From: Mycobacterium sp. UM_CSW
GTDB lineage: Bacteria; Actinomycetota; Actinomycetes; Mycobacteriales; Mycobacteriaceae
Assembly: GCF_000455205.1 (NCBI RefSeq)
Contig: NZ_AUWQ01000030.1
Location: forward strand, 1 to 42,269
Reading direction: 5' to 3'
Length of the DNA: 42,269 nucleotides
Under the pieces are notes generated by a model. That model was given only the letters and a program-made list of their open reading frames with translations, was not told the DNA's origin and made no database searches. This document shows, one piece after another, positions 4,284 to 22,734 of this stretch (its first letter is position 1; each line of letters opens with the position of its first letter). The position numbers were made by a program, and so were the translations under genes.

Positions 4284-5478
4284 ACTCGACCGGCAGCGCG
4301 GCCGGCGAGCGAAACGCGACGCCCACGACGTGCGGTGCCGGGGCGGTCGGGTCCAACCCCAGGTCTCCCAGTCGGTCGAGCAGCGCGCCGATGGCCACCG
4401 TCCCCTCCATCCGCGCCAGGTGCATGCCCAGGCACAGGTGCGGTCCGCCCCCGAACGTCAGGTGGGCGATGTTCTTGCGGGTGGGGTCGAAGCGGTCCGG
4501 GTCCGGGTAGCGTGCCGGGTCGCGGTTGGCGGCGGCGACGCTGACGCTGACGGTCGCCCCCGCCGGGATCGCGATCCCGCCGAGCTCGCAGTCCCGGACC
4601 GCCCGTCGTACCACCGTGGTGATCGGTGGCTCCCAGCGCAGCGCCTCCTCGAAGGCGCCGCGCAGCATGCCGCGATCGGCCCGCAGCTCCGCCAGCAGGT
4701 CCGGCTCCGTGAGCAGCGCCACCAGCAGGTTGCCCGAGGCGCGGTAGGTCGTCTCGACGCCGGCGGGCAGGATCAGCAGCAGGAACGCGAAGATCTCGTC
4801 GTCGGTCAGACGGGCGCCGTCGATCTCGGACTCCGCCAGCGTGCTGATCAGGTCGTCCTGCGGGCGGCGCCGCCGTTCGGCGAGGATCTCCGCGAGGTAG
4901 GCCTTCAGCTCCGCCGACGCGGCGAGCCCGCGTTCCCAGTCGTAGACCACGTTGAGCAACTCGATCGACAGCCGCTGGAAGCGCGGGTAGTCCTGCCGCG
5001 GCAGGCCCATGATCCGGGCGATGACTTGGACCGGAAACGCGAAGGTGAACTCGCGGGCCAGCTCGGCCCGCCCGCGCGGCGCGAACCGGTCGATGAGCTC
5101 GTGGACGACCACCTCCACGAGCTCGGTGCGCCAGCGTTCCAGCAGCGCCGTGCGGAACGACGGCGATACAAGCGCCCGGCTGGCCCGGTGCTCGGCGCCC
5201 TCGAGTTCGAGCAGCGTGACGCCCATGACCGGGCCCATGATCTGGTCGTAGATCGACGACGAGAAGGTGTCGGGGTGGGTGAGCACCGTCTGGCACTCCT
5301 CGTACCCCAGCACCGTCACCCCGAGGTCGCCGACCTGTACGGAGCTGATCTCGGCGAAGGGGTTGCCGATCATCACCCGGTGCCGTTCGCGGGCGTCGCG
5401 CAGCCGCTCGTGCACGTTCTCGACCTGCAGGAGCAGCCCGCCCTGCAGCTCGACGGGGTCGAAACCCTGGGTCGTCAC
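4270..5478 (-). CDS. Cytochrome P450 (A)
   Basis: A 402-residue bacterial class I P450. Seen: I-helix oxygen-activation motif AGVETT, K-helix ExxR motif (EEALRWEPP), and haem-ligand loop FGGGPHLCLG with Cys349. No fused reductase is present, so it needs a ferredoxin and ferredoxin reductase in trans; a ferredoxin exists elsewhere in the window (30938-31132). The GTG start at 5478 overlaps the stop of the upstream amidohydrolase by 4 bases (GTGA). The frame is open further upstream, but that extension is only a shadow of the amidohydrolase. It is the last gene of a three-gene minus-strand operon with two amidohydrolases, suggesting oxidation followed or preceded by amide/lactone-type hydrolysis of an unidentified substrate. 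Confidence 0.93.
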   Translation of the reverse strand: MTTQGFDPVELQGGLLLQVENVHERLRDARERHRVMIGNPFAEISSVQVGDLGVTVLGYEECQTVLTHPDTFSSSIYDQIMGPVMGVTLLELEGAEHRASRALVSPSFRTALLERWRTELVEVVVHELIDRFAPRGRAELAREFTFAFPVQVIARIMGLPRQDYPRFQRLSIELLNVVYDWERGLAASAELKAYLAEILAERRRRPQDDLISTLAESEIDGARLTDDEIFAFLLLILPAGVETTYRASGNLLVALLTEPDLLAELRADRGMLRGAFEEALRWEPPITTVVRRAVRDCELGGIAIPAGATVSVSVAAANRDPARYPDPDRFDPTRKNIAHLTFGGGPHLCLGMHLARMEGTVAIGALLDRLGDLGLDPTAPAPHVVGVAFRSPAALPVEFTPA

Positions 5479-7196
5479 GAGGCTTTGACCGTCTCGGTGT
5501 CGCGTCCGGACCGCAACACGGTGCCGGGCAGGGCGCCGGTCGCGGCGCCGTCGCGGCACACCTCGACGCCACCGACCAGCACCGAGGTGATCCCGTAGGC
5601 GTCGGCGACCAGCCGCGGCGCGCCGGCGGGCAGGTCGTAGCGGGTGCGTTCGGGCCCATGGTCGACCGTGGCCGGGTCGAACAGCACCAGGTCGGCGTGC
5701 CAGCCAGGCTCGATGCGGCCGCGTTCGGTCAGACCGTAGAACCGGGCCGGCACGTCGGTGATCAGCCGGACGGCCTCCTCGAGCGTCACGACCTGATGCT
5801 CGCGGACGCCCCGGCCCAGCAGCGACGTCGTGTAGATGGCGCCGCACATCATGTCGAGGTGGGCGCCCGCGTCCGAGCCGCCGATCACCGCGCCCGGGTG
5901 GTGCCACACTTCGGCGCGCTCCCGCCAGTCGGCCGCGTCGTCACCGGTCAGCGGCGGGGACAGGCCGGTGCGCAGCTCGTCGGCGATCACGATGTCCAGC
6001 AGCGTGTCGAAGGGCTCGCCACCCCGGTCGGCGGCGATCGCCCCGACGCTGCGGCCGGTCGCGTCGGCGTTCTCGGGGGCGAACGTCTCGACGATGACGA
6101 GTCGGTCCCATTGCGCCAGGCCGCGCAGCATGCCGGCCTCCTTGGACGCGGCGCCCTCGGCGAGGCGGCGGCGCACCTGCGGATCGGCAAGCGCAACAAG
6201 CCGTTCGGGCACCGGCAGGTGCATCGTGTCGCGCCAGCCGGGCAGCCCGTCGAGCACGAAGCCGGACAGGAACGAAAGCCGGATCTTCATGGCCTGCGGC
6301 AGGGTCAGCGCCACCACCCGGCCGCCGCGTCGGGCCGAGGCGTCGAAGGCGCGCAACTGCTTTTCGTGCCCGGTCGGGTTGGCCGCCGAGACGCCGAGCA
6401 GGTTCCAGTTCAGCGGGCGGTCCGCGGCCACCGACATGTCGGTCAGCAGCGCGATGTCGTCGTCGGTGAAGCCGGACAGGCAGCCGGGGATGATGGCCTC
6501 CAGTGTGGTGCCCGGATGGTCGCGGAGTGCGCCCGCGAGTGTCACCAGCTCGTCGCGCGAAGCGCTGCGCGACGGAACCGGTTGCCCGGCACCGTCGTTG
6601 TGGGTGGGCGACTGCGAGGTCGACAGCCCGAGCGCGCCGGCGCCCAGCGCTTCGTGCAACACCGCGACCATCTTGTCGATGTGTTCCGGTGTGGCCTCGC
6701 CGCCCACGGCGTCGGCGCCCATCGCGGCCAGCCGCAGCGCCGAATGGCCGACGAGGAAACCGGCATTGACCGCGGTGTGGCCGTCCAGGCGGGCCAGCCA
6801 GTCGCCGAACGATGCCCAGCCCCAGTCGAGGCCGGCCCGCAGCGCGTCCAGCGGCATTCCCTCGACCCGCGCCAGCATCCGGGTGAGGTAGTCGTGTTGG
6901 TCGGGTGCCGCGGGCGCCAGCGTGAAGCCGCAGTTGCCGCCGAAGACGGTCGTGACGCCGTGCTGCACCGACGGGCTTGCGGTCGGGTCCCAGAACAGCT
7001 GCGCGTCGTAGTGAGTGTGCAGGTCGACGAACCCGGGCGCGAGTGTCTGTCCTTGGGCGTCAACGGTTTTGGTGGCCATGTCGTCGACGTCACCGACGGC
7101 GACGATGCGCCCGTTGCTGACGCCGACGTCGCCGTGGCGGGCGGGCGCGCCGGTGCCGTCGACGATCTCGGCGTCGCGGATCAACAAGTCAAGCAC
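5475..7196 (-). CDS. D-aminoacylase / N-acyl-D-amino-acid deacylase-type amidohydrolase
   Basis: A 573-residue metal-dependent amidohydrolase. The N-terminus LIRDAEIVDGTG followed by GRIVAVG is the typical beta-sandwich opening, then FVDLHTHYDA gives the metal-binding HxH of the TIM barrel. HGVTTVFGGNCGF, GSDAGAH and the C-terminal RIEPGWHADLVLFD re-entry into the sandwich domain match the N-acyl-D-amino-acid deacylase group. Substrate is unknown; mycobacterial genomes carry several such genes near P450s and lipid genes. The GTG start at 7196 is preceded by a good AGGAGG site at about 8-base spacing. The gap to the upstream amidohydrolase is 11 bases and there is a 4-base overlap with the downstream P450, so one transcript is likely. 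Confidence 0.88.
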   Translation of the reverse strand: MLDLLIRDAEIVDGTGAPARHGDVGVSNGRIVAVGDVDDMATKTVDAQGQTLAPGFVDLHTHYDAQLFWDPTASPSVQHGVTTVFGGNCGFTLAPAAPDQHDYLTRMLARVEGMPLDALRAGLDWGWASFGDWLARLDGHTAVNAGFLVGHSALRLAAMGADAVGGEATPEHIDKMVAVLHEALGAGALGLSTSQSPTHNDGAGQPVPSRSASRDELVTLAGALRDHPGTTLEAIIPGCLSGFTDDDIALLTDMSVAADRPLNWNLLGVSAANPTGHEKQLRAFDASARRGGRVVALTLPQAMKIRLSFLSGFVLDGLPGWRDTMHLPVPERLVALADPQVRRRLAEGAASKEAGMLRGLAQWDRLVIVETFAPENADATGRSVGAIAADRGGEPFDTLLDIVIADELRTGLSPPLTGDDAADWRERAEVWHHPGAVIGGSDAGAHLDMMCGAIYTTSLLGRGVREHQVVTLEEAVRLITDVPARFYGLTERGRIEPGWHADLVLFDPATVDHGPERTRYDLPAGAPRLVADAYGITSVLVGGVEVCRDGAATGALPGTVLRSGRDTETVKAS

Positions 7197-7207
7197 GTGC
7201 GGGCCTC

Positions 7208-8398
7208 CTACGTTCTGGCGAGCCACCCGTCGTCGGGCAGCGGGTGGCCGAACAACTGTGCGGCGTTGCGATGGGTGATCCGGGCCGCGTCCTCCGCCGA
7301 CAGGCCGGCGACGTTGCGCGCCACCACCTCTTGGGTGTCGGGCCACGTCGAGTCGGCGTGCGGGTAGTCGCTTTCGACGAGGATGCGGTCGGCCCCGATC
7401 GCGTCGAGCGCGCCGAACGCGTGCGGGTCGTCGATCGAGCAGAACCAGAAGTTGCGCCGCAGCACCTCGCTGGGCAGCAGGTCGCTCTTCCACGCCCCGC
7501 CCTCGTGGCCCGAAGCTGAATGCGCCAGAACGTAATCGGCGCGGTCGCCGAGCATGGCCGCCCAGCCGAGACCGCCCTCGGCCAGCGTGATGTTGAGCCC
7601 CGGGAACCGCACCGGGATGCCCGACCACAGCATGTCGGCGCACGCGACCAGACCGTTCACCGGGAACAGGGTCGTGATGGTTTCAAAAGGCGTGTCCGGG
7701 GCGGGGATTGGCGCCCACTGCGCGGAGCCGGTGTGCAGGCACACCACGGTGCCGGTCTCCTCGCAGGCGGCGAAGAACGGATCCCACGCGCCGCTGTGCA
7801 GGCTTGGAATCCCGCATTGGGCCGGCAGCTCGGGGAAGCTCACGGCCTTGAAGCCGCGCGCGGCGTTACGGCGGACCTCCTCGGGCGCGAGTTGGGGGTC
7901 GGCCAGCCACGGCAGCTGCAGCGGGATGATCCGGTCGGGGTAGGCACCGGCCCACGCCTCGAGGTGCCAGTCGTTCCAGGCCCGCAGGGTGGCCAGGCCC
8001 AGCTCCAGGTCGTCGCTATTCCAGAAGACGGTGCCGGCGAACCCGGCGATCAGCGACGGGAAGTTCAGCGATGCCCAGATACCGGCGAGGTCCATATCGG
8101 CGATCCGGGCGTCGACATCCCAACAGCCGCGCCGCATTTCGTCGAACCGGGCGGCTTCCATGCTCCATTCCTCGCGGGGCCGTCCGATCACCGCGTTAAG
8201 GCCGATGTTGGGATACTCGCGGCCCTCGTAGCGCCACACCTGGCGCCCGTCGTCGGTCTCGACGACCTTCGGGGCGCGGTCGGACAGCGCCGCGGGCAGC
8301 CGGCCGATGAACAGATCGGGCGGCTCGATGACGTGGTCGTCCACCGAGATCACGACGTGCTGTCGCTGCCGGGGATCAGGGTCTGGCAGCAGCGCCAT
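7208..8398 (-). CDS. Amidohydrolase (Amidohydro_2 / ACMSD-like metal-dependent hydrolase)
   Basis: A 396-residue TIM-barrel hydrolase of the amidohydrolase-2 group (relatives include ACMSD and other decarboxylases/hydrolases). Seen: VDDHVIEPPDLF (start of the metal site), VVCLHTGS (metal His), AEGGLGW, and near the C-terminus ESDYPHADSTWPDT with the conserved Asp. Actinobacteria encode many members with unknown substrates, often in lipid or xenobiotic gene sets. It is the first gene of the operon amidohydrolase - D-aminoacylase-like - P450; the ATG at 8398 follows a candidate promoter very closely. Whether the enzyme hydrolyses or decarboxylates cannot be decided from sequence. Confidence 0.85.
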   Translation of the reverse strand: MALLPDPDPRQRQHVVISVDDHVIEPPDLFIGRLPAALSDRAPKVVETDDGRQVWRYEGREYPNIGLNAVIGRPREEWSMEAARFDEMRRGCWDVDARIADMDLAGIWASLNFPSLIAGFAGTVFWNSDDLELGLATLRAWNDWHLEAWAGAYPDRIIPLQLPWLADPQLAPEEVRRNAARGFKAVSFPELPAQCGIPSLHSGAWDPFFAACEETGTVVCLHTGSAQWAPIPAPDTPFETITTLFPVNGLVACADMLWSGIPVRFPGLNITLAEGGLGWAAMLGDRADYVLAHSASGHEGGAWKSDLLPSEVLRRNFWFCSIDDPHAFGALDAIGADRILVESDYPHADSTWPDTQEVVARNVAGLSAEDAARITHRNAAQLFGHPLPDDGWLART

Positions 8399-9204: not shown

Positions 9205-12200
9205 GTGGAGAACGACGGTCGCGGTGCCCTGACGAGGGTGGGACTGTCGTGTGGGGCGTGCGGCACCGCGCTGGCCGCGGCCGCCAAGTTCTGCTGTGAG
9301 TGCGGCGCGGCGGTGGCTCGGCCCGCGCAGTCCGCGGAGTACAAGCAGGTGACGGTCCTGTTTGCCGACGTCGTGCATTCGATGGATATCGCCGCGGCGC
9401 TGGGCGCGGAGCGCCTGCGGGAAATCATGGCGGACTTAGTCGATAGCGCGGTGACCGTGGTGCAGCGCTACGGCGGCACGGTGGACAAGTTCACCGGCGA
9501 TGGAATCATGGCCGTGTTCGGTGCGCCGATAGCGTTGGAGGACCACGCCGTTCGCGCCTGTCTGGCTGCCTTGGGTCTTCAGGAAGCGGCGCAGACGCTC
9601 GCCGTCCACATTCGTAACCGTGACGAGGTGGACCTGCGACTGAGGGTGGGCCTCAATTCCGGCCAGGTGATCGCCGGTGAGCTCGGTTCGGCACGGTTCG
9701 GATACACCGCCATTGGTGAGCAGGTCGGCATGGCCCAGCGGATGGAGTCGGTGGCACCGCCGGACGGGGTGATGCTGAGCGATTCGACGGCCAAATTGGT
9801 CGGCAGCGCCGTCGTCCTCGGCGAGCCCGAGCCAGTGCAGATCAAAGGCGGCAACACTGTGATCGCCAGGCGCTTGTTGGCCGTCGGTGAACATAAGCCG
9901 CATCGTCGTACCGAATCGAAACTGGTCGGGCGTGCCTGGGAATTCACCACCCTCAGCGGGATTTTCGAAGAGGCGATCGCCGGTACGGGCTGCATCGTCA
10001 ACATCGTGGGGCCGGCGGGCATTGGCAAGAGCAGGCTGGTGCGGGAGACAGCCGCGCTCGCGGGCCTTCGCGGTGTGCCGGTGTTCGGCACCTACTGCGA
10101 GTCGCATACCAGTGACATCTCGTTCCACGTGGTGGCCAGGATGCTGCGCTCAGCACTCGGAGTCGAAGAACTCGGCGCCGAAACCGCACGCAAGCACATT
10201 CGTGACCGGTTTCCTCAGGCGGACCCGGAAGACGTGCTCTTGATGGACGACCTGCTGGGAATCCGCGATGGAGCGATGCCGCTGCCCGATATCGCCGCCG
10301 ATGCGCGCCGCCGGCGACTGACGGCGCTGGTCAATGCCGGCGCACTGGACCGGCCCGAAGCGGCGGTGTACGTCATCGAGGATGCGCACTGGATCGACGA
10401 AATCAGCGAGTCGATGCTGGCCGACTTCCTGGCCGTGGTGCCACAGATCCCGTCGCTGGTACTGATCACCTACCGTCCGGAATATCAGGGTGCGCTCAGC
10501 CGCATCCCCGGTGCTCAATCGATTGCCTTGCGGCCGTTGAGCGATGCGCACACCCAGGCGTTAACTGCGGAGCTACTCGGCGCTGATTCGTCGACGGGCG
10601 GACTGGCCTCGCATATCGCCGGACGGGCGGCCGGAAACCCGTTCTTCGTCGAGGAGATGGTTCGCGATCTGGCCGAACGCGGCGTGCTGCAAGGCCGGCC
10701 CGGCGCCTACCAGCGGCGCGGTGACGTCGCAGACGTCGACGTACCGGCCACGCTGCAAGCCACGATTGGCGCGCGCATAGATCGCCTCGCGGCGTCAGCA
10801 AAACAGACTTTGAATGCCGCGGCGGTCATCGGGGCACGCTTCGGCACCGAGCTGCTGGCCGAACTGGTCCCCGACGTAGACGTGGTGCCGCTGATCGAGG
10901 CAGAACTTGTCACTCAGGTCAGGTTCACGCCCAATCCCGATTACGCGTTTCGCCATCCGCTGATCCGCACGGTTGCCTACGAATCCCAACTCAAATCCGT
11001 TCGCGCGCAGTCACATCGACGGCTCGCTGCATCGGTCGAAGCGCGTGGATCGGCGGACGAGAACGCGGCACTCATCGCCGAACACCTTGAGGCAGCAGGG
11101 GATTTGCATGCGGCCTTCGACTGGCACATGCGTGCCGGCACGTGGTCGGCCTTCCGTGATATGGGTGCGGCGCAGACGAGTTGGCGGCGGGCGCGCCAGG
11201 TCGCCGATCAGCTACCGCTCGACGACCGTGATCGCTTGACTATGCGTATCGCCCCCCGGACGCTGTTGTGTGCGACCGCATATCGGATCGGCGGTAGTGG
11301 TGCCGACACGGGCTTCGAGGAGCTGCGCGAGCTAAGCGAAGCCGCAGCCGATCGGCGCTCGCTAGCGATTGGGATGGCCGGGCTGCTGACGTGGCGGGTG
11401 ATGAAGGCGCAGCGTCGCGAGGCGTCGCAACTTGCCGACGAACTTGTCCAACTGCTGGAGGCAATCGACGATCCCACCTTGACGGTGGCGCTGTCCTTCA
11501 CCGCGATGATTGCCAAAAACGAAACCGCCGAAATGGCCGACGTGCTGCGGTTCGCCCAACTCGTAATCGATCTCGCCGAGGGCGATACCGGCAAAGGCAG
11601 CCTGATCTTCGAATCTCCCTTGACGAACGCGACCACCATGCGCGGCCTTGCCCGATGGTGCCTAGGCATCGCCGACTGGAAAGATGACTTCGATCAGAGC
11701 ATCGCAACGGCTCGCGCGCTCATGACTGACCCCGGGACTCATGGGGGCGTCATGTGGTTCACCTACGTGCACGCCATCCCGTACGGGGTGTTGGTAGTGG
11801 ATGCGACTGCCCTGCGCGACACCGCGGAATTCCTGTCGATGGCACAGCAATCGGGTGACGATCTCGCCCTCGACCTGGCTCGAGGAGTTCATGGCCTCGC
11901 CCTGTCGTATCAGGACGGCCCCGCGCGCGAACTTGGCTTCGAGTTGCTCGCCAAAGTGCGAGAGCGGGCCGCGAACAACCGGTTCGCCATAACCAACCTG
12001 CCGTTGATCGACGCCCACGTCGCCCGGGAAAAGGCGCGGACCGGCGATATCGACGGCGCCATCGAATTGGCCCGCGTCGTCGCCGACGATTTGTTCAACT
12101 CCGGCGGGTGCATCTGGACCGCGCTGGCCACCAGTGTCCTCGTGGAGGCGCTGCTGCAACGTGGCGGTGACGGCGATCTCGATGAGGCCGACAGCGCGAT

Positions 12201-12393
12201 TGGCAAGTTGGCGGCCGTGCCGACCGATCCCGGCTTCGTCGTGCACGAGATCACGTTGCTGCGACTTCGTGCGCTGCTGGCCCGTGCCCGCGGAAACGAG
12301 GCCGCCTACCACGACAGTCGCGACCGCTACCGCGCCATGGCAACATCGCTGGGCTTCGAGGGCCAGATGAAGTGGGCCGAGGCGATGCCGTAA
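9205..12393 (+). CDS. Zinc ribbon - class III cyclase - STAND ATPase - TPR-like protein (paralog 1)
   Basis: A 1062-residue multidomain protein. Residues 16-34 hold a CxxC...CxxC zinc ribbon. Residues about 45-225 are a class III nucleotidyl cyclase domain: metal Asp55 and Asp99, purine-selecting Lys95 and Thr168, and Arg179, but Gly175 where the catalytic Asn is expected (IGEQVGMAQRM instead of the usual IGDxVNxAxR). Residues about 238-560 are an AAA/STAND-type ATPase with Walker A GPAGIGKS and Walker B VYVIEDAHW. The remainder is helical, TPR-like. Unlike the M. tuberculosis relatives Rv0386/Rv1358/Rv2488c (from memory), there is no C-terminal LuxR helix-turn-helix; the protein ends at MKWAEAMP. 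The GTG at 9205 gives a sensible zinc-ribbon N-terminus. Likely a cytosolic signal-integrating ATPase; ligand and output unknown. Confidence 0.88.
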   Translation: MENDGRGALTRVGLSCGACGTALAAAAKFCCECGAAVARPAQSAEYKQVTVLFADVVHSMDIAAALGAERLREIMADLVDSAVTVVQRYGGTVDKFTGDGIMAVFGAPIALEDHAVRACLAALGLQEAAQTLAVHIRNRDEVDLRLRVGLNSGQVIAGELGSARFGYTAIGEQVGMAQRMESVAPPDGVMLSDSTAKLVGSAVVLGEPEPVQIKGGNTVIARRLLAVGEHKPHRRTESKLVGRAWEFTTLSGIFEEAIAGTGCIVNIVGPAGIGKSRLVRETAALAGLRGVPVFGTYCESHTSDISFHVVARMLRSALGVEELGAETARKHIRDRFPQADPEDVLLMDDLLGIRDGAMPLPDIAADARRRRLTALVNAGALDRPEAAVYVIEDAHWIDEISESMLADFLAVVPQIPSLVLITYRPEYQGALSRIPGAQSIALRPLSDAHTQALTAELLGADSSTGGLASHIAGRAAGNPFFVEEMVRDLAERGVLQGRPGAYQRRGDVADVDVPATLQATIGARIDRLAASAKQTLNAAAVIGARFGTELLAELVPDVDVVPLIEAELVTQVRFTPNPDYAFRHPLIRTVAYESQLKSVRAQSHRRLAASVEARGSADENAALIAEHLEAAGDLHAAFDWHMRAGTWSAFRDMGAAQTSWRRARQVADQLPLDDRDRLTMRIAPRTLLCATAYRIGGSGADTGFEELRELSEAAADRRSLAIGMAGLLTWRVMKAQRREASQLADELVQLLEAIDDPTLTVALSFTAMIAKNETAEMADVLRFAQLVIDLAEGDTGKGSLIFESPLTNATTMRGLARWCLGIADWKDDFDQSIATARALMTDPGTHGGVMWFTYVHAIPYGVLVVDATALRDTAEFLSMAQQSGDDLALDLARGVHGLALSYQDGPARELGFELLAKVRERAANNRFAITNLPLIDAHVAREKARTGDIDGAIELARVVADDLFNSGGCIWTALATSVLVEALLQRGGDGDLDEADSAIGKLAAVPTDPGFVVHEITLLRLRALLARARGNEAAYHDSRDRYRAMATSLGFEGQMKWAEAMP

Positions 12394-13514: not shown

Positions 13515-14753
13515 TTAATGCCCGGGCTCGAATTCGATCGGCAGTGATATGGGTCCGCTCAGCCCGCTGAGGGGCTTCCATGGGGCCGGACCGGCGAGGC
13601 GGGCGTTGGGCATGCGCCGGGTCATGATCGCGAGTGCTTCGGCCAGCTCAAGTCGGGCCAGGTTGGCGCCCAGGCAGTAGTGCATGCCGGCGCCGAACGT
13701 TTGCATTGGCGGGGCGCCGTCGCGGGTGATGTCGAGGCGGTCGGGTTCGTCGTACACGGCGGGATCGCGGTTCGCGGCGGCGGTGTTGGCGATGACCAGC
13801 GTGCCGGCCGAGATCATGAATCCGGCGATTTCGACGTCCTCGCGCGCTGTGCGCAGCGTGGCGGCCGCGATCGGTGAGTGGCGCATCGTCTCTTCGACGG
13901 CCTTGTTGGCGAGCTCGGGATTCTGGGCCAGCAGCTCCCACTGGCCGGGGTGCTCGCACAACGCCTGCACCGAGGCCGCCAGCTGGTTGCGGGTGGTGTC
14001 GGTGCCGGCGATCAGCAGGCCGGCCGCCAGCATCCGTAGTTCGTCGGCGCTGAGGTGATCGCCGTCGTCCTCGGCCCGGATGAGCTCGGAGATCAGGTCG
14101 TCGGTCAGCCGGTGGCGCCGCTGGGCGACCATGTCGTCGATGTAGGCGTCGAGATCCTCCCACGCGGTCAGGATGGTCCGCTCGTGGGCGGCGACGTCCC
14201 AGCTGAAGGCCTTGAAGATGTCGTCGGTCCAGTCCGAGAAGAGCTGCCAATCCTCCGCCGGCGCGCCCAGCAGCGCGCAGATGATCGGGATCGGATATTG
14301 CCGAGCGATGTCGCCGACCACCTCGCAGCGTCCCGTAGCGGCGTAGCGGTCCACCAGTTCGGTGATCACATCGACGATCGTCGTGCGCAGCCGTGCGGTG
14401 GCGCGCGGTGTGAAGGCTTGGGAGACCAGTCGTCGCAGCCGTTGGTGTTCGGGCCCGTCGAGGCTGATCAGGCTGGCTGCCACCCGCTCCCACAACGGGC
14501 CACTGGTGATGCCTTGTGAGGCCAGGAACATGCCCTGAGGCATCCGGAATCGGGGGTCGCGCAGCACGCTTCTGACCAGTTCGTAGGTCAGCAGCTCCGG
14601 CCCGTGCGGGCTGACGGCGATCGGCGCCTGGCGTCGCGCTGCCCGGAGGATTTCGTGCGCCTCGTCCGGGCTCTGGCAGTGCTCGTAGTTGATCCTCGGG
14701 AGGCCCGCCTCGAACACGCTCGGGCAGATCGGCGCATCAACCGCGATGGTCAT
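13515..14753 (-). CDS. Cytochrome P450 (B)
   Basis: A 412-residue class I bacterial P450. Seen: I-helix AGTDTT, ExxR (EETMRHSP), the conserved NRDPAVYDEPDRLD segment, and haem loop FGAGMHYCLG with ligand Cys360. The start was placed at the ATG at 14753 (MTIAVDAPIC), preceded by GGGGAA; the frame stays open upstream but that extension has no P450 features. It is a single gene divergent from the fused cyclase-kinase gene, sharing the 171-base region 14754-14924 with it. No adjacent ferredoxin; the physiological substrate is not predictable. Confidence 0.92.
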   Translation of the reverse strand: MTIAVDAPICPSVFEAGLPRINYEHCQSPDEAHEILRAARRQAPIAVSPHGPELLTYELVRSVLRDPRFRMPQGMFLASQGITSGPLWERVAASLISLDGPEHQRLRRLVSQAFTPRATARLRTTIVDVITELVDRYAATGRCEVVGDIARQYPIPIICALLGAPAEDWQLFSDWTDDIFKAFSWDVAAHERTILTAWEDLDAYIDDMVAQRRHRLTDDLISELIRAEDDGDHLSADELRMLAAGLLIAGTDTTRNQLAASVQALCEHPGQWELLAQNPELANKAVEETMRHSPIAAATLRTAREDVEIAGFMISAGTLVIANTAAANRDPAVYDEPDRLDITRDGAPPMQTFGAGMHYCLGANLARLELAEALAIMTRRMPNARLAGPAPWKPLSGLSGPISLPIEFEPGH

Positions 14754-14924
14754 GGTGTTCCCCAGAGGTCGTCGGTGTCGTGCTTTCACCACGAAGTCTT
14801 GGGGGCGGGGGAGCGCATCACACGCGTAGTGGACTACCTCAGTTCCTCTCGCGGGTGTGTCCCAACCACCTATTCTGTGAGGACCACTGCAAACGCTGGG
14901 GGGCCCGGGACAGCGGAGGGTCGG

Positions 14925-17900
14925 ATGGCGACCGGAGCGGCATGCCGGACGTGCGGGGCCCAGCCTCTGGAGAATGCCCGGTTTTGCCATGGTTGCGGTT
15001 CACCGGTCGGCGGCACCGGGACGCAGGCGGAGTACAAGCAAGTCACGGTTCTGTTCGCCGACGTGGTCGGATCGATGCAGATCGCAGCGCGGGTGGGCGC
15101 CGAGCGTCTGCGTGAGATCATGGCCGAACTCGTTGACCGCTGTGGGGCAGTGGTGCGGCGCTACGGCGGGACCGTGGACAAGTTCACCGGCGACGGCATC
15201 ATGGCGGTGTTCGGCGCCCCAATTGCGTTGGAAGACCACGCGATTCGTGCCTGTCGCGCGGCGCTTGCCATCCAAGACGAGACCGTCCGGTTGGCCGCCG
15301 AGGTCCACTACCGCGACGGTGTGAGTCTGCAATTGCGGGTGGGCCTCAATTCCGGTCAGGTGATCGCCGGCGAAATCGGTTCCGGGCGGCTCGGTTACAC
15401 CACCATCGGCGAGCAAGTCGGCATGGCACAGCGGATGGAATCCGCCGCCTCGCCCGGTGGTGTCGTCGTCAGCGAGTCAACCGCCCGTCTGGTCAAGCAT
15501 GTTGCGATGCTCAGCGAGCGGGAGATGGTAAGCATCAAGGGCGCCGACGTTCCGGTACCCATGCGCCGTCTTGTCGGGATGACGGCACGGGGTCCCCTCG
15601 ATCGCGGACGATCGACCCTGGTGGGGCGCCAACAGCAAATCAGCGCCCTCACCGAGCTGCTCGACCGCTCGATGAGCGGTCACGGCGTGGTCGTTGGGGT
15701 GGTCGGGGACGCCGGAATCGGCAAGAGCCGCCTGGTGCGCGAGGCTGCCGCGATCGCCCGCGCCCGCGGTGTCGACGTTATCTGGACTTTCTGCGAGTCA
15801 CTCGCCAGCGAGATCCCCCTTCACGTCGTTTCGCAGCTATTGCGCGCGGCCATCGGGATAGGTGACATCGACGGCGCCGACGCCCGCGTTCAGGTGCGCG
15901 CCCGGTTTCCCGGCGCCGATGCCGAGGACTTGCTGCTGCTCGACGACCTGCTGGGCATCGCCGACCCTGACGTCGCGGCCCCTCGCATCGACCCGGATGC
16001 CCGCCGGAGGCGACTGGCGGCACTCGTGAACGGCGCCTGGCTGGCCCGCTCCACGCCGGCGGTCTTCGTCATCGAAGATGGCCAGTGGTTGGACGACGCC
16101 AGCGAGTCGATGCTGGCGGAATTCCTGTCGGTGGTATCGCAGACTTCCATCATGGTGGTGATTACTCACCGCCCGGAATACCGGGGAGCATTGACCCGCA
16201 CAGCCGACGCACGAACGATTTCCCTTGCACCCCTGAGCGATCCAGACTCCACGGCGCTGATCACTGAGCTGCTGGGCAGTGATTCATCCGTAACCGAGCT
16301 GACCACGATCGTCGCCGATCGCGCGTCGGGAAACCCGTTCTTCGCCGAGGAGATCGTTCGCGACCTGACAGAGCGCGAGGTGCTCGTCGGAGACCCGGGC
16401 GCTTATGTCTGCCGTACGGCTGTCGCGGACGTCAATGTGCCCGCGACGTTGCAGGCGACCATCGCCGCCCGCATAGACCGCTTGGACCCGGCGGCCAAGC
16501 GGTGCGTGAGCGCCGCGGCCGTGATCGGGTCGCGATTCGACAGCGACCTACTCACCGCGCTGGAGGTGCAGCCGGCCGTTGATGAGCCGGTCAAGTCCAA
16601 GCTGATCGATCAGGCGAGCGACATGCGGGGTGGGGAGTACGTGTTCCACCACCCGTTGATCCACGCCGTGGCCTACGAATCACAGCTCAAATCCGATCGC
16701 GCTGAGTTGCACCGGCGCCTGGCGCGAGTAATCGAGGCACGTGACCCGGCCTCGCTGGACCAGAACGCAGCGCTGATCGCCGAACATCTGGAGGCCGCGG
16801 GCGACGTCGCTGGGGCCTATGGGTGGCACATGCGCGCCGGGATGTGGCTGTCCCAGCGGGATGTCGTCGCGGCCGACCGGTGCTGGGCGCGGGCACGGGA
16901 CCTCGCCGACGCACTACGGACCGACGACGACCACCGCACCGCGGCGCGCATAGCGCCACGTGCGATGTTGTGCGCCAACGCCGGCCGGGTGCGTGCGCCC
17001 GATGCTGAGGCACGCTTCGAGGAACTGCAGGAGCTGTGCGAGGCGGCCGACGATAAGGGGTCTTTGGCCTTCGGTATGGCCGGCCAGCTTCCGATGCTGA
17101 TGCTGCGCGGGCGGGTGCGAGAAGCCGCGCAGCTGGCATCCGAGTACATGACCCTGGTGGAGTCGATAGGCGATCCGACGCTCACCATTCTGCTGTCCTT
17201 CGTGGCGCTCCCGACCACGCTGGAAGCCGGGCATATCGACGACGTGCTGCGTTGGTCACAGGCTGCGATCGACGCGGCCCAAAACAACCCTCTCGTCGAG
17301 CCTTTGGTGGCCGGCGCCCTGGCGGTCCGCGGCACCGCCCGCTGGGCTGAGGGCCATTCCGGGTGGCGAGACGACTTCGACCAGGCCGTCGCCATGGGAT
17401 GGGGGGCCGATCCAATGGTGTACGGCTACGTCGTGAGCGTGACATACGCCTCCGCGATAGCAATGGGGATCATGCTGGCCGACGACTCCGCGCTCGCAAA
17501 TATCGGCGAGGCGCTGCGAGTCGCCGAGCGATCCAGCGACGACATTGCGCTGGGCCTGACGCGCATGACTATGGGGATCGCACTGGCGCACCGGGATTCG
17601 CAGACGGAGCGTGAGCGGGGATCGTCGGTGCTGGCGGAGGTCCGTGAGATGTGTCTGCGGGAGCGCTTTTACATGTCCGAGCTCCCGATCCTTGAGGTGT
17701 ATGCGGCACGCGACAGGGCTGCGGGTGGAGATCGCGACGGCGCTCTGCCGCTGATGCGTAAAGCGGTGGACGACTTGTACTTCAGGGGGCAGCGCGGCTA
17801 CTTTACCTGGGCCACCAGCGTTCTGGTCGACACGCTGCTGGCCGGCGGGGCAGACGCCGACATAGACGAAGCCCGGAGCGCAATCGACCGATTGGCGACC

Positions 17901-19526
17901 GGCCCCGCGGGCGGGGGAGTGGTGCTCCGCGAGATCTGGCTGCTCAGACTGCGGGCGCTGGTGGCGCGGGCTCGCGGGGACGAAATCGGCTACCGTGACT
18001 TGGTGCAGCGCTACGGCGCCTTGGCAACGTCGCTCGGATTTGAGGGCCACATGGCAATGGCCGAAGCGATGACCTCACTTGAGGTCGATTCTCCGCCAAG
18101 AAGGTTCGCGACGCCGACCACGAGAGGCGAGATACCGCGCGGCCGAATCCGCCGAACCATGCCGCTAGCGGGATTCACTGCGCGCGCGGCGGGAGGACGG
18201 ATTGTGGCGGGGCTGCGCGAGAAGACGGGCGACGCTGGGGCCGTCGCGCGTTTCCACGAACGGACCGCCGAGGGGTACTCGCAGCTGCTTGGGCACTCCA
18301 AGGGCGTGCTGATGAAGGTCGGGCAGATTCTCTCCATGTTCGACGCGAATTCGGTCGGCGGCGCGTTTTGGCCGTACCAGGCCGCGCTGGCGCGGTTGCA
18401 GGCCGATGCGCCGCCGATGGACCCCGACCTCGCCAAAGACATCGTGTTCACCGATCTGGGCCGACGGGTAGAGGAGGTATTTTCGCGATTCACCAATGAA
18501 CCAATCGCGGCGGCATCCATCGGGCAGGTGCATCGTGCGGTGCTGCGTGACGGTCGCGAGGTGGCCGTCAAGATTCAGTATCCCGGTGCGGCAGAAGCGA
18601 TCCGTGACGATCTGGCGAACCACGAACTGTTGACAACCGTCCTGCGATTCCTCTCGTCGGCCGCGGGTGCCACGATGCCCGATCTGCGGCCTGCAACACG
18701 CGAGATCGCGACGCGCATCGCCGAAGAAGTGGACTACCGCCACGAAGCCTCAAATATCACCGCATTCAGCGAGCTCTACCGCGGTCATCCCTTCATCCGG
18801 GTACCCGAGGTCATTGGCGAGGCGTCCGGTGACCGGGTGCTCACCATGACATACCTCGACGGATTGGACTGGTCATCGGCGCGACAGGCCGACCAAGACC
18901 TGAAAAATGCCTGGGCAGAGGCCATCTCGCGATTCATGGCCGGCTCGTTCCGGCACGCGAATCTGTTTCAGGCCGATCCTCACCCAGGCAACTATCGTTT
19001 CGGCACCGACGGGCGGGTCGGATTCGTCGATTTCGGCTGCGTCAAGGTCCTGTCCGAGCGTCAGCGCCGCAGCTTCGTCGGGATGGCTCGTGCCGCGGTC
19101 GAGGGGCGGAAACACGAACTGCGCGACCTGATGATCCAAACCGGTTTCCTGGCCGGCGACTCCACACTCACGGCCGACGAGGCGTACGAGTGGTGGGCAG
19201 AGATTCTGCATGAGCTGCTAGCACCGCAGCCGGTCACGTATACCCACGACGGCTCGATGCGGGTAACCCGGGGACTGGTTGATGCTCGCTCTGCGGATCA
19301 TCCTGCTCGGCGCCTATCGATTCCCGGCGATTTCGTCTTCTTCCCGAGACTGACGTTGGGCATGAACACACTCTTCGCCGCGCTGGGGGCCACCCTCGAT
19401 GCCCGGTCAATCTATGACGACCTCGATGGCGTCGCCGAACCGGTGACGCCGCTGGGCAAGCGTCACCATGCCTGGGTACGTCAACGCGGGCTGCCGTGCG
19501 GACTGGAAGCCCATGACCACGCCTAG
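14925..19526 (+). CDS. Zinc ribbon - cyclase - STAND ATPase - TPR - ABC1/UbiB kinase fusion (paralog 2)
   Basis: One uninterrupted frame of 1533 residues. Residues 7-24: zinc ribbon CxxC...CxxC. About 37-215: class III cyclase domain with Asp46, Lys86, Asp90, Thr159 and Arg170 kept, but Gly166 at the catalytic Asn position. Walker A GDAGIGKS (261-268), Walker B VFVIEDGQW. The TPR-like helical part ends near MAEAMT (about 1050), where the other two paralogs stop. Residues about 1080-1533 are a complete ABC1/ADCK/UbiB atypical kinase: KVGQ (1131-1134), Ala-rich AAASIGQVH, VAVKIQYP with Lys1216, EEVDYRHEA around 1270, catalytic DPHPGN (1351-1356) and metal DFG (1369-1371). The ATG at 14925 follows GGAGGG; a GTG at 14877 is an alternative. 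Stand-alone ABC1 proteins support quinone/lipid metabolism; this fusion has no role I know of. The last 14 bases overlap paralog 3. Confidence 0.9.
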   Translation: MATGAACRTCGAQPLENARFCHGCGSPVGGTGTQAEYKQVTVLFADVVGSMQIAARVGAERLREIMAELVDRCGAVVRRYGGTVDKFTGDGIMAVFGAPIALEDHAIRACRAALAIQDETVRLAAEVHYRDGVSLQLRVGLNSGQVIAGEIGSGRLGYTTIGEQVGMAQRMESAASPGGVVVSESTARLVKHVAMLSEREMVSIKGADVPVPMRRLVGMTARGPLDRGRSTLVGRQQQISALTELLDRSMSGHGVVVGVVGDAGIGKSRLVREAAAIARARGVDVIWTFCESLASEIPLHVVSQLLRAAIGIGDIDGADARVQVRARFPGADAEDLLLLDDLLGIADPDVAAPRIDPDARRRRLAALVNGAWLARSTPAVFVIEDGQWLDDASESMLAEFLSVVSQTSIMVVITHRPEYRGALTRTADARTISLAPLSDPDSTALITELLGSDSSVTELTTIVADRASGNPFFAEEIVRDLTEREVLVGDPGAYVCRTAVADVNVPATLQATIAARIDRLDPAAKRCVSAAAVIGSRFDSDLLTALEVQPAVDEPVKSKLIDQASDMRGGEYVFHHPLIHAVAYESQLKSDRAELHRRLARVIEARDPASLDQNAALIAEHLEAAGDVAGAYGWHMRAGMWLSQRDVVAADRCWARARDLADALRTDDDHRTAARIAPRAMLCANAGRVRAPDAEARFEELQELCEAADDKGSLAFGMAGQLPMLMLRGRVREAAQLASEYMTLVESIGDPTLTILLSFVALPTTLEAGHIDDVLRWSQAAIDAAQNNPLVEPLVAGALAVRGTARWAEGHSGWRDDFDQAVAMGWGADPMVYGYVVSVTYASAIAMGIMLADDSALANIGEALRVAERSSDDIALGLTRMTMGIALAHRDSQTERERGSSVLAEVREMCLRERFYMSELPILEVYAARDRAAGGDRDGALPLMRKAVDDLYFRGQRGYFTWATSVLVDTLLAGGADADIDEARSAIDRLATGPAGGGVVLREIWLLRLRALVARARGDEIGYRDLVQRYGALATSLGFEGHMAMAEAMTSLEVDSPPRRFATPTTRGEIPRGRIRRTMPLAGFTARAAGGRIVAGLREKTGDAGAVARFHERTAEGYSQLLGHSKGVLMKVGQILSMFDANSVGGAFWPYQAALARLQADAPPMDPDLAKDIVFTDLGRRVEEVFSRFTNEPIAAASIGQVHRAVLRDGREVAVKIQYPGAAEAIRDDLANHELLTTVLRFLSSAAGATMPDLRPATREIATRIAEEVDYRHEASNITAFSELYRGHPFIRVPEVIGEASGDRVLTMTYLDGLDWSSARQADQDLKNAWAEAISRFMAGSFRHANLFQADPHPGNYRFGTDGRVGFVDFGCVKVLSERQRRSFVGMARAAVEGRKHELRDLMIQTGFLAGDSTLTADEAYEWWAEILHELLAPQPVTYTHDGSMRVTRGLVDARSADHPARRLSIPGDFVFFPRLTLGMNTLFAALGATLDARSIYDDLDGVAEPVTPLGKRHHAWVRQRGLPCGLEAHDHA

Positions 19527-22500
19527 TGCCGACGCGCCGCGTTTCGCGGAAGCCGCCAATGATCGGTCGCCCACCGCATCGGCGTGCCGGACATGTGGCA
19601 CCGAGCGTCTGGCGAACGCGCGGTTTTGCCATAGTTGCGGTTCACCGGTCGGCGACGCCGAGACCCGCGCCGAGTACAAGCAAGTCACCGTTCTGTTCGC
19701 CGACGTGGTCGGATCGATGCAGATCGCAGCGCGCGTGGGTACCGAGCGTCTGCGTGAGATCATGGCAGAACTCGTTGACCGCTGTGGGGTAGTGGTGCGG
19801 CGCTACGGCGGGACTGTGGACAAGTTCACCGGCGACGGCATCATGGCCGTGTTCGGAGCGCCAATTGCGTTGGAAAACCACGCTTTCCGAGCCTGCCTGG
19901 CGGGACTGGGGATCCAGGAGGCGGTTGCCGGCCTCGCCGACGACATCGGCCGCCGCGACGGCGTGAACTTGCGGATGCGCGTGGGCCTCAACTCCGGCCA
20001 GGTGATCGCGGGTGAGATCGGTTCGAGCGCAATGGGTTACACGGCGATCGGTGAGCAGGTGGGGATGGCCCAGCGGATGGAGTCGGCCGCGCCTCCCGGT
20101 GGTGTGATGCTGAGCCTGTCCACTGCCCGGCTGGTTGAGGACGCCGTGGTGCTCGCCGCGCCGGAGATGGTGCGTATCAAGGGCGCCGGCGCTTCGGTGG
20201 CCGCGTGCCGCTTGGTCGGCGTCCTCGAGCACCGGCACGGCCGGCGAAACGACCCGACGCTGGTAGGGCGAACATGGGAGCTGAGCACCATCGGTGAAAT
20301 CTTCAAGGAGTCCTTCGGCGGTGCGGGACGAGTGATCGGCGTCCTTGGCTCGCCGGGAATGGGCAAGAGCCGCATCGTCGCCGAGTCGGCCGCGTTGGCC
20401 GGCAACCTCGGTGCGGAGGTGTTCGTCACCTACTGCGAGTCCCACACCAGCGACGTGCCGTTCCACGCGGTGACGGGCCTGCTGCGGAGTCGCCTGGGAC
20501 TCAACGACATCGACAGCGCGAAGGCGCGGACGCGTGTGCGTGATCGCATTCCCACCGGCGACGCCGAAGATCTGCTGCTGTTGGACGACCTGCTAGGCAT
20601 ACGGGACCCTGAGGCAACGCTCCCGGACGTCGACCCCGACGCGCGGCGACGACGGCTGACCGCCCTACTCCGCTCGGCATGGCTGGCGCAAACCACAGCG
20701 GCGCTGTACGTCGTCGAAGACGCACACTGGATCGACCGCGTCAGCGAGTCGATGTTCGGTGAGCTCCTGAGCGTCGTTCGCCAGACGCCCTCCGCGGTGT
20801 TGATCACCTACCGCCCCGAATACATCGGACCGTTGTTCGATGCGCCTGGTGCGCAGACCATTTCACTCGCCCCGCTCAGTGGCGCAGAGACCGGCGCATT
20901 GCTGGGTCAGCTGTTGGGGCCGGATCCGTCGGTTACGGCCATCAAGGCGCTGATTTCCGAGCGTGCCGGAGGCAACCCGTTCTTCGCCCAGGAGATGGTG
21001 CGCGACCTCGCCGAACGCGGTGTCCTCGAGGGCGAGCGCGGCGGCTACCGCAGCGCCAGCGACATCGCCGACGTGACGGTTCCGGCGAGCCTGTATGCGA
21101 CGCTCGCGGCCCGCATCGACCGCCTTGATGTCAGGGCAAAACGAACCCTGAACGCCGCAGCGGTGATCGGATCGCGGCTCGACGCCGACCTGTTGGCCGG
21201 CGTTGTGGACGGACCGCAAGTCGCCCCGCTGATCGAGGCCGACCTCATGGAGCAAGTGGCTGCGGCGCCGCGCATCGAGTACGCGTTTCGCCATCCCCTC
21301 ATCCGCGCGGTGGCCTATGAATCGCAATTGAAGTCCGACCGCGCCGCGCTGCATCGCCGGTTGGCCGCGGCGATGGGAGCACACGATCCGGGATCGGCCG
21401 ACGAGAACGCCGCGTTGATAGCCGAACATCTGGAGGCCGCCGGCGATTCGCTCGGCGCCTACGCGCAGCACATGCGGGCCGGCGCGTGGTTGATGGCCAG
21501 GGATATCGTCGCTGCGCGGCGCAGCTGGGAGCGGGCCCGCACAGTCGCAGACGCGCTACCTTCGGAGCTCCCAGAGCGCGTCGCGCTGCAGATCCACCCC
21601 AGGACGATGCTGTGCTACAGCACGTGGCGGGTGGGCGGTACCGCCGAGGAGACCGGATTCGCGGACCTGCGTGAGTTGTGCACCGCATCGGGCAACCGGG
21701 TCTGGCTGGTGGCCAGCCTGTCCGGCGTGATGTTGTCGTTGACCTCCGCCAATCGCCATCACGAATCGGCCCGGCTGGCGTCGGAGCAGATCGCCCTGTT
21801 CGATTCGGCGGACGACCAGATGAACCACTTCGCGGTGATGTCCGCGGCGATGTTCGCCAAGCTCCATGTGGGCGAAGCGGCCGAGGCGCTGCGCGTGGCG
21901 CAGCGAGTGATCGAGCTGGTCGGCGAAGACGGCTCGAAGGGCAACGTATCCGGGCTGGGATCTCCGCTGGCGGTCGCGCTCATCTACCGCGCGCATGCCC
22001 GCGCGGCGCTCGGTCAGCGGTCCTGGCGCGCCGACTTCAAACGCGCCATCTCGATACAGCAAGGCCTGCGGGGGCCCTCCGGTCTCGTAATCGTGATCAC
22101 CTACGGCTACACCGTCGCCGTCACGAACGGCTTGCTGTTGCCGGATGCCGCCGCACTGGCCGAAACGGCCGACGTGCTCGGCAACGCCGAAAGGTCCGGG
22201 GAGGACGTTGCCGTCGCGCTCGCGCAGGTGGCCCACGGGCTGCTGTTGACCCACGCGGCGCCGGCGGATACGCACACCGGGTTGGACGTGCTGCGCGAAG
22301 GACGCGAGGCCCAGCTGCGACAGCGCAACCTGCTCGGTGTGGCGATGGCCGACATTCGCATCGCCGAGTTGAAGGCCGCCGCCGGCGACGTCCACGACGC
22401 TATCGCGATTGCCCGCGCGACGGTGAACGAGCTGACCGAATCCGGAGAGATGCTGGTGCGCGGCGCCGCCAGTGCCGCGCTCGTTTCCGCTCTGTTGTTG

Positions 22501-22734
22501 CGCGGCAACGACACCGACGTGGACGAGGCGCAAACAGTGATCGACCGGCTGGCGGCCACGCCGGTCGAGCCGGGCTTCGTCGTCAACGAACTCGCTTTGC
22601 TGCGCATGCGGGCGCTGGTGGCGCGCGCCCGCGGCCATGAGGGGGCATATCGCGAGTCCGTGGGTCGCTACCGCGATCTGGCGACGACGTTCGGCTTCGA
22701 CGGGCACATTGCGACGGCCGACGCTATGCGATGA
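19513..22734 (+). CDS. Zinc ribbon - class III cyclase - STAND ATPase - TPR-like protein (paralog 3)
   Basis: A 1073-residue paralog of the two preceding large proteins. Zinc-ribbon cysteines 25, 28, 39 and 42; cyclase domain about 53-235 with Asp64, Lys104, Asp108, Thr177 and Arg188, again with Gly184 instead of the catalytic Asn. Walker A is GSPGMGKS (279-286), Walker B LYVVEDAHW. The C-terminal half is helical, TPR-like, ending at ATADAMR; no DNA-binding domain. The ATG at 19513 overlaps the preceding gene by 14 bases and has a weak GGAAG site, so translation is probably coupled; an in-frame ATG at 19468 is a less likely alternative. Its first 270 bases are far closer to paralog 2 than the rest of the gene is. 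Confidence 0.88.
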   Translation: MTTPSADAPRFAEAANDRSPTASACRTCGTERLANARFCHSCGSPVGDAETRAEYKQVTVLFADVVGSMQIAARVGTERLREIMAELVDRCGVVVRRYGGTVDKFTGDGIMAVFGAPIALENHAFRACLAGLGIQEAVAGLADDIGRRDGVNLRMRVGLNSGQVIAGEIGSSAMGYTAIGEQVGMAQRMESAAPPGGVMLSLSTARLVEDAVVLAAPEMVRIKGAGASVAACRLVGVLEHRHGRRNDPTLVGRTWELSTIGEIFKESFGGAGRVIGVLGSPGMGKSRIVAESAALAGNLGAEVFVTYCESHTSDVPFHAVTGLLRSRLGLNDIDSAKARTRVRDRIPTGDAEDLLLLDDLLGIRDPEATLPDVDPDARRRRLTALLRSAWLAQTTAALYVVEDAHWIDRVSESMFGELLSVVRQTPSAVLITYRPEYIGPLFDAPGAQTISLAPLSGAETGALLGQLLGPDPSVTAIKALISERAGGNPFFAQEMVRDLAERGVLEGERGGYRSASDIADVTVPASLYATLAARIDRLDVRAKRTLNAAAVIGSRLDADLLAGVVDGPQVAPLIEADLMEQVAAAPRIEYAFRHPLIRAVAYESQLKSDRAALHRRLAAAMGAHDPGSADENAALIAEHLEAAGDSLGAYAQHMRAGAWLMARDIVAARRSWERARTVADALPSELPERVALQIHPRTMLCYSTWRVGGTAEETGFADLRELCTASGNRVWLVASLSGVMLSLTSANRHHESARLASEQIALFDSADDQMNHFAVMSAAMFAKLHVGEAAEALRVAQRVIELVGEDGSKGNVSGLGSPLAVALIYRAHARAALGQRSWRADFKRAISIQQGLRGPSGLVIVITYGYTVAVTNGLLLPDAAALAETADVLGNAERSGEDVAVALAQVAHGLLLTHAAPADTHTGLDVLREGREAQLRQRNLLGVAMADIRIAELKAAAGDVHDAIAIARATVNELTESGEMLVRGAASAALVSALLLRGNDTDVDEAQTVIDRLAATPVEPGFVVNELALLRMRALVARARGHEGAYRESVGRYRDLATTFGFDGHIATADAMR

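What the first reader, a model, noticed from the sequence alone, without database searches (positions are those of the whole stretch)
14925..19526. Cyclase-STAND-TPR protein fused to a complete ABC1/UbiB atypical kinase
A single frame joins a zinc ribbon, class III cyclase domain, STAND ATPase, TPR-like region and a full ABC1 kinase with all signature motifs (KxGQ, Ala-rich loop, catalytic Lys, ExD, DPHPGN, DFG). The junction lies exactly where the two neighbouring paralogs end (about residue 1050), which suggests loss of the stop codon between an ancestral cyclase/ATPase gene and an adjacent ABC1 gene. I know of no described system in which nucleotide-cyclase/STAND sensing is wired in cis to an ABC1 kinase, which normally supports quinone or lipid metabolism. 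The protein could couple a sensed ligand to an ATP-dependent lipid/quinone response.
Basis: partly seen in the sequence, partly recalled or inferred. Interest (0 to 1): 0.88.

Follow-up and report, generated by a model that had tools for sequence, protein, structure and literature searches.

The report
Sensor-switch protein fused to ABC1 kinase
In a Mycobacterium genome one long protein joins a large signalling switch to an enzyme-like ABC1 kinase domain that is usually a separate protein; the join is real, shared by a second species and kept by selection, but what it does is still unknown.

Summary
Window 14925-19526 (+) is one open frame of 1,533 aa: zinc-ribbon cysteines, class III cyclase domain, STAND-type ATPase, a region Pfam does not name, and a complete ABC1/UbiB domain. 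It is not an assembly accident: a second species (G188, Mycobacterium sp. 852002-51163) has the same fusion in the same gene order, 73-79% identical. Both halves are under purifying selection, and the frame survives an indel in a fast-changing linker. Both halves trace to one fusion event. The ABC1 half belongs to a clade found in 88 of 396 genus genomes, fused in only these two. Elsewhere it is a free gene, usually in a TetR / ABC1 / P450 cassette whose P450 both fused genomes lack. Unfused cyclase-STAND relatives stop where the fusion goes on; in 9 of 38 the stop forms an ATGCCATGA overlap, so a merger of overlapping genes is the likely origin. Best guess: STAND-driven clustering controls the ABC1 ATPase in cis. 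This is unproven.

The parts
14925..19526 (+). fused gene: cyclase-STAND protein joined to ABC1 domain, 1,533 aa
14943..14996 (+). zinc-ribbon cysteines (CxxC...CxxC, residues 7-24)
   Evidence: C7, C10, C21, C24 invariant in the 50 rows
15027..15545 (+). class III cyclase homology domain (residues 35-207); metal Asp46 and Asp90, Lys86 and Arg170 kept, transition-state Asn position is Gly166
15618..16160 (+). STAND-type AAA_16 ATPase (residues 232-412), Walker A 261-268, Walker B 380-385
16725..18071 (+).
18069..18128 (+). junction and variable linker (Met1049 to residue 1068); Met1049 may be the old ABC1 start
18120..19523 (+). complete ABC1/UbiB unit (residues ~1066-1533) homologous to free-standing proteins
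18393..19118 (+). ABC1 Pfam domain with AAAS loop, Lys1216, E1268xD1270, DPHPGN and DFG; KVGQ lies just upstream at 18315
19513..22734 (+). P3, unfused cyclase-STAND paralog whose ATG overlaps the end of the fused gene by 14 bases
9205..12393 (+). P2, unfused cyclase-STAND paralog; its orthologue in G188 overlaps the fused gene by four bases
13515..14990 (-). P450 (PF00067) divergent from the fused gene; true start probably inside; 34% identical to the cassette P450 of L041, so not its orthologue
4270..8398 (-). P450 - Amidohydro_3 - Amidohydro_2 block, upstream of P2 in both fused genomes (81-91% identical)

Best explanation
The gene makes one protein in which an oligomerising STAND switch carries an ABC1 ATPase/kinase-like module on a flexible tether. 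SHOWN: the frame, the domains, intact ABC1 and Walker motifs, a second species, purifying selection, one origin, and the descent of the ABC1 half from a free-standing clade usually found in a TetR / ABC1 / P450 cassette. INFERRED: the fusion arose when an overlapping stop/start pair (a 4-base ATGA overlap, seen at some gene ends of this family) merged by a small deletion. INFERRED: a ligand or stress signal makes the STAND part load ATP and assemble. This brings ABC1 modules together through their N-terminal arms (MABP-1 is a domain-swapped dimer) and so turns on or concentrates an ATP-dependent action on a hydrophobic small molecule, perhaps for the P450/amidohydrolase genes nearby. The cyclase domain would bind nucleotide or pair in the assembly rather than be a strong cAMP source.
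For: Open frame and domains. Second species with the same fusion and gene order. dN/dS 0.24/0.23/0.27 for cyclase/STAND/C-terminal region and 0.12-0.14 for the ABC1 parts; the linker is 37% identical with a two-codon in-frame indel. Ten of ten checked ABC1 positions are invariant in 47 of 47 rows. Fused pair monophyletic, 100/100, inside the cassette clade; the cyclase halves pair too (quick tree). Cassette context. Nearest folds MSMEG_1954 and Rv3197. The linker and the conserved start of the N-terminal arm are unplaced in the monomer model, pLDDT below 50 at residues 1053-1090, as a swapped arm might be. MABP-1 is a domain-swapped dimer (PMC6208485, first part of the text read).
Against: No ligand, activity or oligomer is shown. 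Only two species, one lineage event. The whole N-terminal arm is modelled with low confidence, so the swapped-arm idea may be a modelling gap. A flexible tether also fits mere co-expression. In many STAND proteins the C-terminal position is the sensor, not the output (recalled). Two giant proteins of the same genome carry SnoaL-like domains after a cyclase-AAA core, which suits a ligand-binding role at that end. MABP-1's ATPase is slow (PMC6208485) and kinase activity was not identified for it (PMC8696161). The cyclase may still work: Ma1120 has Ala at the Asn site and is active (PMC4215837, passages). No unfused cyclase-STAND / ABC1 neighbours were found, so the merger step has no surviving intermediate here.
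Confidence: 0.4

Rival explanations
1. The ABC1 module is the sensor. It sits in the C-terminal position usual for STAND sensors, binds a hydrophobic ligand in an ATP-dependent way as MABP-1 binds macrolides, and its change of shape triggers the STAND switch, with the N-terminal zinc ribbon and cyclase domain as output.
For: MABP-1 and MSMEG_1954 are described as macrolide-binding, and MSMEG_1954 changes from closed to open with nucleotide (abstract and discussion of PMC8696161). Two giant proteins of the same genome have SnoaL-like domains after a cyclase-AAA core. Metal Asp46/Asp90 and Arg170 of the cyclase are invariant in 50 of 50 rows.
Against: The linker is variable and unplaced, poor for passing a shape change. 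The unfused members examined lack this domain. The cyclase lacks the transition-state Asn.
Confidence: 0.25
2. The fusion only ties two proteins together for equal dosage; there is no regulation between them.
For: Variable, flexible linker; overlapping gene ends occur in the family, so a merger could be neutral at first.
Against: The fusion has lasted over a synonymous divergence near 0.77 with the linker frame kept through an indel.
Confidence: 0.22
3. Two proteins are made after all, by internal initiation at Met1049 (18069) or a later ATG.
For: Met1049 lies where free ABC1 proteins start, e.g. MTG..VPRGR.
Against: By eye no strong ribosome-binding site precedes 18069 (sequence), and no stop separates the frames in either species.
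Confidence: 0.1
4. The protein signals by cAMP: STAND-regulated cyclase activity controls the ABC1 domain. (The rivals are not all mutually exclusive.)
For: Both metal Asps, the substrate Lys and the Arg are present; Ma1120 works without the Asn.
Against: Gly at the Asn position in 50 of 50 rows; no cyclic-nucleotide-binding domain was found in the fused protein.
Confidence: 0.1

Closest known systems
Mclx proteins of M. tuberculosis (Rv0386, Rv1358, Rv2488c): cyclase - AAA/NB-ARC - LuxR (PMC4452763, passages read)
   Same: N-terminal cyclase homology domain and central AAA/NB-ARC ATPase; two of the three also lack the transition-state Asn according to that paper
   Different: Mclx end in a DNA-binding LuxR domain; here the C-terminal module is an ABC1 kinase and no LuxR domain is found
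MABP-1 / Rv3197 and MSMEG_1954, mycobacterial ABC1 proteins (PMC6208485, PMC8696161)
   Same: ABC1 fold, N-terminal helical extension, ATP-site residues; best PDB match by sequence and by fold
   Different: about 28-33% identical, a separate clade, not fused; 213.9 bits against the family cut-off of 800
Free-standing ABC1 proteins of the TetR / ABC1 / P450 cassette in mycobacteria
   Same: same clade, 49-74% identical in the matches (most over the whole ABC1 unit, a few partial); tree
   Different: separate gene, usually beside a TetR and a P450 gene; neither fused genome has a close copy of that P450
Human COQ8A/ADCK3 and COQ8B, UbiB family
   Same: same kinase-like fold (COQ8A) and sequence match (COQ8A and COQ8B)
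   Different: 22-25% identical to COQ8A in the fold alignment; a quinone role is not indicated here

Membership tests
ABC1/UbiB atypical kinase (PF03109) | domain score and catalytic motifs KxGQ, A-rich loop, Lys, ExD, DxHPGN, DFG | tested here: met
   189.5 bits against cut-off 22.9; motifs present, ten checked positions invariant in 47 of 47 rows
ABC1/UbiB atypical kinase (PF03109) | UbiB/ABC1 fold | tested here: met
   top 12 PDB fold matches are Rv3197, MSMEG_1954 and COQ8A/ADCK3 entries, E 2e-20 to 3e-17
ABC1/UbiB atypical kinase (PF03109) | ATPase or kinase activity | not testable with these tools
   needs purified protein
MABP-1 (NF050082) | curated score of 800 bits | tested here: not met
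   213.9 bits
MABP-1 (NF050082) | position in the MABP-1 clade | tested here: not met
   own genome's L003 falls with other mycobacterial proteins of that kind (M. persicum row), the fused pair elsewhere; that L003 is the MABP-1 orthologue is inferred, not tested
P450-cassette ABC1 clade | sequence clade | tested here: met
   45-row clade 100/100 holds the fused pair
P450-cassette ABC1 clade | neighbouring cassette P450 | tested here: not met
   best match 38% identical in G000 and 34% in G188, against 76% in G117; the window's two P450s are 31% and 34% identical to it
P450-cassette ABC1 clade | divergent TetR gene next to it | tested here: not met
   the divergent neighbour of the fused gene is a P450; in G188 the upstream neighbour is the P2 paralog. 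The cassette TetR was not searched for elsewhere in these genomes
Class III nucleotide cyclase (PF00211) | domain, two metal Asps, substrate Lys, transition-state Arg | tested here: met
Class III nucleotide cyclase (PF00211) | transition-state Asn | tested here: not met
   Gly166, Gly in 50 of 50 rows
STAND ATPase | P-loop ATPase with Walker A and B | tested here: met
   AAA_16 82.6 bits against 32.6; K267, E384, D385 invariant in 50 of 50 rows. The nSTAND1 model itself scores 19.3, below its cut-off of 27.1
STAND ATPase | repeat-type C-terminal sensor region | tested here: inconclusive
   no Pfam match in residues ~433-1156; the structure job had not finished
Mclx (cyclase-AAA-LuxR) | C-terminal LuxR domain | tested here: not met
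   no such Pfam match
TOMM_kin_cyc (TIGR03903) | curated score 705.75 bits | tested here: not met
   253.6 bits
Pycsar cyclase PycC | cyclase with its own effector partner | tested here: inconclusive
   matches to nine PycC models, all within the cyclase domain, best 1.1e-21; no partner was searched for beyond the neighbours read

The most novel reading that the evidence does not exclude
A STAND switch directly gates an ABC1 ATPase in cis: an ABC1 protein whose activity is set by a built-in signal receptor, which would give a handle on what ABC1 proteins do and what turns them on.
Probability: 0.33. Interest if true: 0.78.

Novelty: new variant of a known kind. Interest (0 to 1): 0.52.

Why it matters
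How ABC1/UbiB proteins are regulated and what they act on is unclear even for COQ8 (abstract starts say as much for yeast Coq8). A natural fusion to a sensory switch gives a physical link that can be tested with one purified protein. It also shows that mycobacterial cyclase-STAND proteins can carry an enzyme-like module besides the DNA-binding LuxR output already described. The TetR / ABC1 / P450 cassette found along the way is a separate lead: it ties an ABC1 protein to a P450 in many mycobacteria.

Tried and rejected
Assembly or frameshift artefact: rejected, because a second assembly has the same frame and the gene lies inside its contig. Fusion as a common event: rejected. Of 88 genomes (of 396) with an ABC1 of this clade at E 1e-100, only G000 and G188 have frames over 1,500 aa; the next longest listed is 654 (four places scored per genome). 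In 298 genomes of the order no further fused frame was listed at E 1e-65 (five places per genome). Other C-terminal fusions in the family: none in 54 tblastn matches, some partial, longest tail 28 aa. One search scored only two places per genome and cut its list, so lower-ranked members were not seen. Other ABC1 fusions in the named loci: four long frames (L125, L129, L116, L081) hold no second Pfam domain. Defence system: PADLOC matches only the cyclase domain. Phmmer of the STAND and C-terminal part against PDB found nothing at E 0.01. First alignment A1 seemed to put the C-terminal-region rows onto the ABC1 columns and was not used. The second structure job had not finished.

Rows dropped before counts: the tree left out matches spanning under 250 residues, with stops, or duplicate; the tree left out matches under 850 residues or with stops, and used a quick method (SH-aLRT only). 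One search left out matches ending before query residue 1030, those ending before 1000. In one search the motif pattern was not found in 8 of 37 rows; alignment A3 then gave Gly in 50 of 50.

Literature: no paper describing this fusion was seen in the listings of searches. These showed 2 to 20 papers each, sometimes of hundreds or thousands that matched, and the library lacks most subscription journals. Seen of the papers used: PMC6208485 (first of two parts of the text), PMC8696161 (outline with abstract, discussion), PMC4452763, PMC4215837 and PMC7159879 (passages), PMC2447327 (abstract start; the passages found were two reference-list entries).

Full report
OBSERVATION. The frame at 14925-19526 (+) is open and codes for 1,533 aa. 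Pfam finds Guanylate_cyc, AAA_16 and ABC1 in that order. A longer reading from GTG 14604 exists, but the ATG at 14925 matches the start of the relatives. Zinc-ribbon cysteines, metal Asps, Walker A and B, and all ABC1 motifs are present. The region between the ATPase and ABC1 has no Pfam name, so 'TPR-like' stays unproven.

IT IS REAL AND OLD. A second genome, G188, carries the same fusion in a 1,558-aa frame. Gene order is shared: NIF3 (only its end lies in the stretch), His_Phos, P450, two amidohydrolases, P2, fusion, at 74-91% identity. The window has an extra PE gene and P450 between P2 and the fusion, and P3 after it. The PE gene has no match in the G188 stretch, this P450 only a 35% one, and P3 matches only a paralog. 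In G188 the P2 stop overlaps the fusion's ATG. Between the two fusions dS is 0.77 overall and dN/dS is 0.21. It is 0.24, 0.23 and 0.27 in the three cyclase-STAND segments and 0.12-0.14 in the three ABC1 segments. The 19-codon linker is only 37% identical and has a two-codon gap, yet stays in frame. That is what selection for a joined protein with a free tether looks like.

WHERE THE HALVES COME FROM. The cyclase-STAND half is one of ten full-length family members in the genome, of which nine are unfused. In 54 tblastn matches to unfused members the longest tail past the family end is 28 aa. Of 38 unfused gene ends read, most stop one residue after the conserved Ala-Met. Nine read ATGCCATGA, and in five of those nine (L039, L143, L145, L150, L171) a mechanical frame of 90 aa or more, or one running off the locus, starts at the ATG inside the stop. 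The fusion reads ATGACC at this spot in the window and ATGACT in G188. The free ABC1 proteins begin with short variable leaders before the conserved PRGR-like motif. The simplest account is a small deletion that merged an overlapping stop and start, so that Met1049 is both the old cyclase-STAND Met and the old ABC1 start. This is inference: no unfused neighbouring pair was found in the 60 loci, of which several are copies of one place and 28 have flanks of only about 1.5 kb.

The ABC1 half belongs to a clade present in 88 of 396 genus genomes at E 1e-100 and in a few other actinobacteria. In 28 best-scored free loci (L011-L038) a P450 gene follows ABC1 in 24; L020 ends at the contig edge, and L023, L024 and L031 show none. 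A TetR gene faces it in 25 of the 28, or 26 counting the longer copy L040 of L011. Some loci hold two or three tandem ABC1 copies. The tree puts the two fused sequences together (100/100) inside this clade; the cyclase halves also pair. Each fused genome has no other ABC1 of the clade at E 1e-100 and no close copy of the cassette P450 (best 38% and 34%).

WHAT IT MAY DO. Ten checked ABC1 residues are invariant in 47 of 47 rows. The fold model of residues 1001-1533 (mean pLDDT 78.7, pTM 0.73) is confident in the kinase core. It is below 50 at residues 1053-1090 and two short later stretches, and mostly 45-65 over the rest of the N-terminal arm. Foldseek ranks MSMEG_1954, Rv3197 and COQ8A first. 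[quoted passage not shown] an erythromycin complex is in the PDB (5yk2). MSMEG_1954 opens its pocket on nucleotide binding (PMC8696161). The conserved arm that the monomer model cannot place could be such a swapped arm. I therefore favour STAND-driven assembly that pairs ABC1 modules. The opposite direction, ABC1 as sensor, is nearly as good, because STAND sensors usually sit at the C-terminus (recalled) and because two giant proteins of this genome carry SnoaL-like domains after a cyclase-AAA core.

THE CYCLASE. The alignment with CyaB (3r5g) shows Gly where CyaB has Asn. It is Gly in 50 of 50 rows. Rv1358 and Rv2488c are said to lack this Asn too (PMC4452763). This weakens but does not exclude cyclase activity, since Ma1120 with Ala there is active, and putting Asn there cut or abolished its activity (PMC4215837).

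NOVELTY. The parts are known: cyclase-STAND proteins, ABC1 proteins, and cyclase-AAA proteins with a different C-terminal output (Mclx). Their combination was not seen in the listings of ten searches of an open-access library (named under Tried and rejected). I rate it a new variant of a known kind: rare, real, and useful for testing what ABC1 proteins do.

Noticed in passing
L215:1-15294 (G000 C28) and L216 (G000 C68): Two giant frames of 5,097 aa and at least 2,511 aa (the latter runs off the contig start) join a SARP-type DNA-binding region (Trans_reg_C, BTAD), a cyclase domain (36 bits), AAA_16, a TPR match below cut-off and several SnoaL-like domains.
   Followed up: partly
L011-L038, L040-L058, L060-L066 and others: A recurring TetR / ABC1 (1-3 copies) / P450 cassette in mycobacteria and some other actinobacteria, the P450 match often starting before the ABC1 end.
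   Followed up: partly
window 24825-28295 (+): 1,156-aa protein with 14 matched WD40 stretches at very high score.
   Followed up: no
window 12723-13415 (-): PE-family protein lying, with a P450 gene, between P2 and the fused gene; no match in the G188 stretch.
   Followed up: no
whole genome G000: 34 Guanylate_cyc matches in one genome.
   Followed up: no
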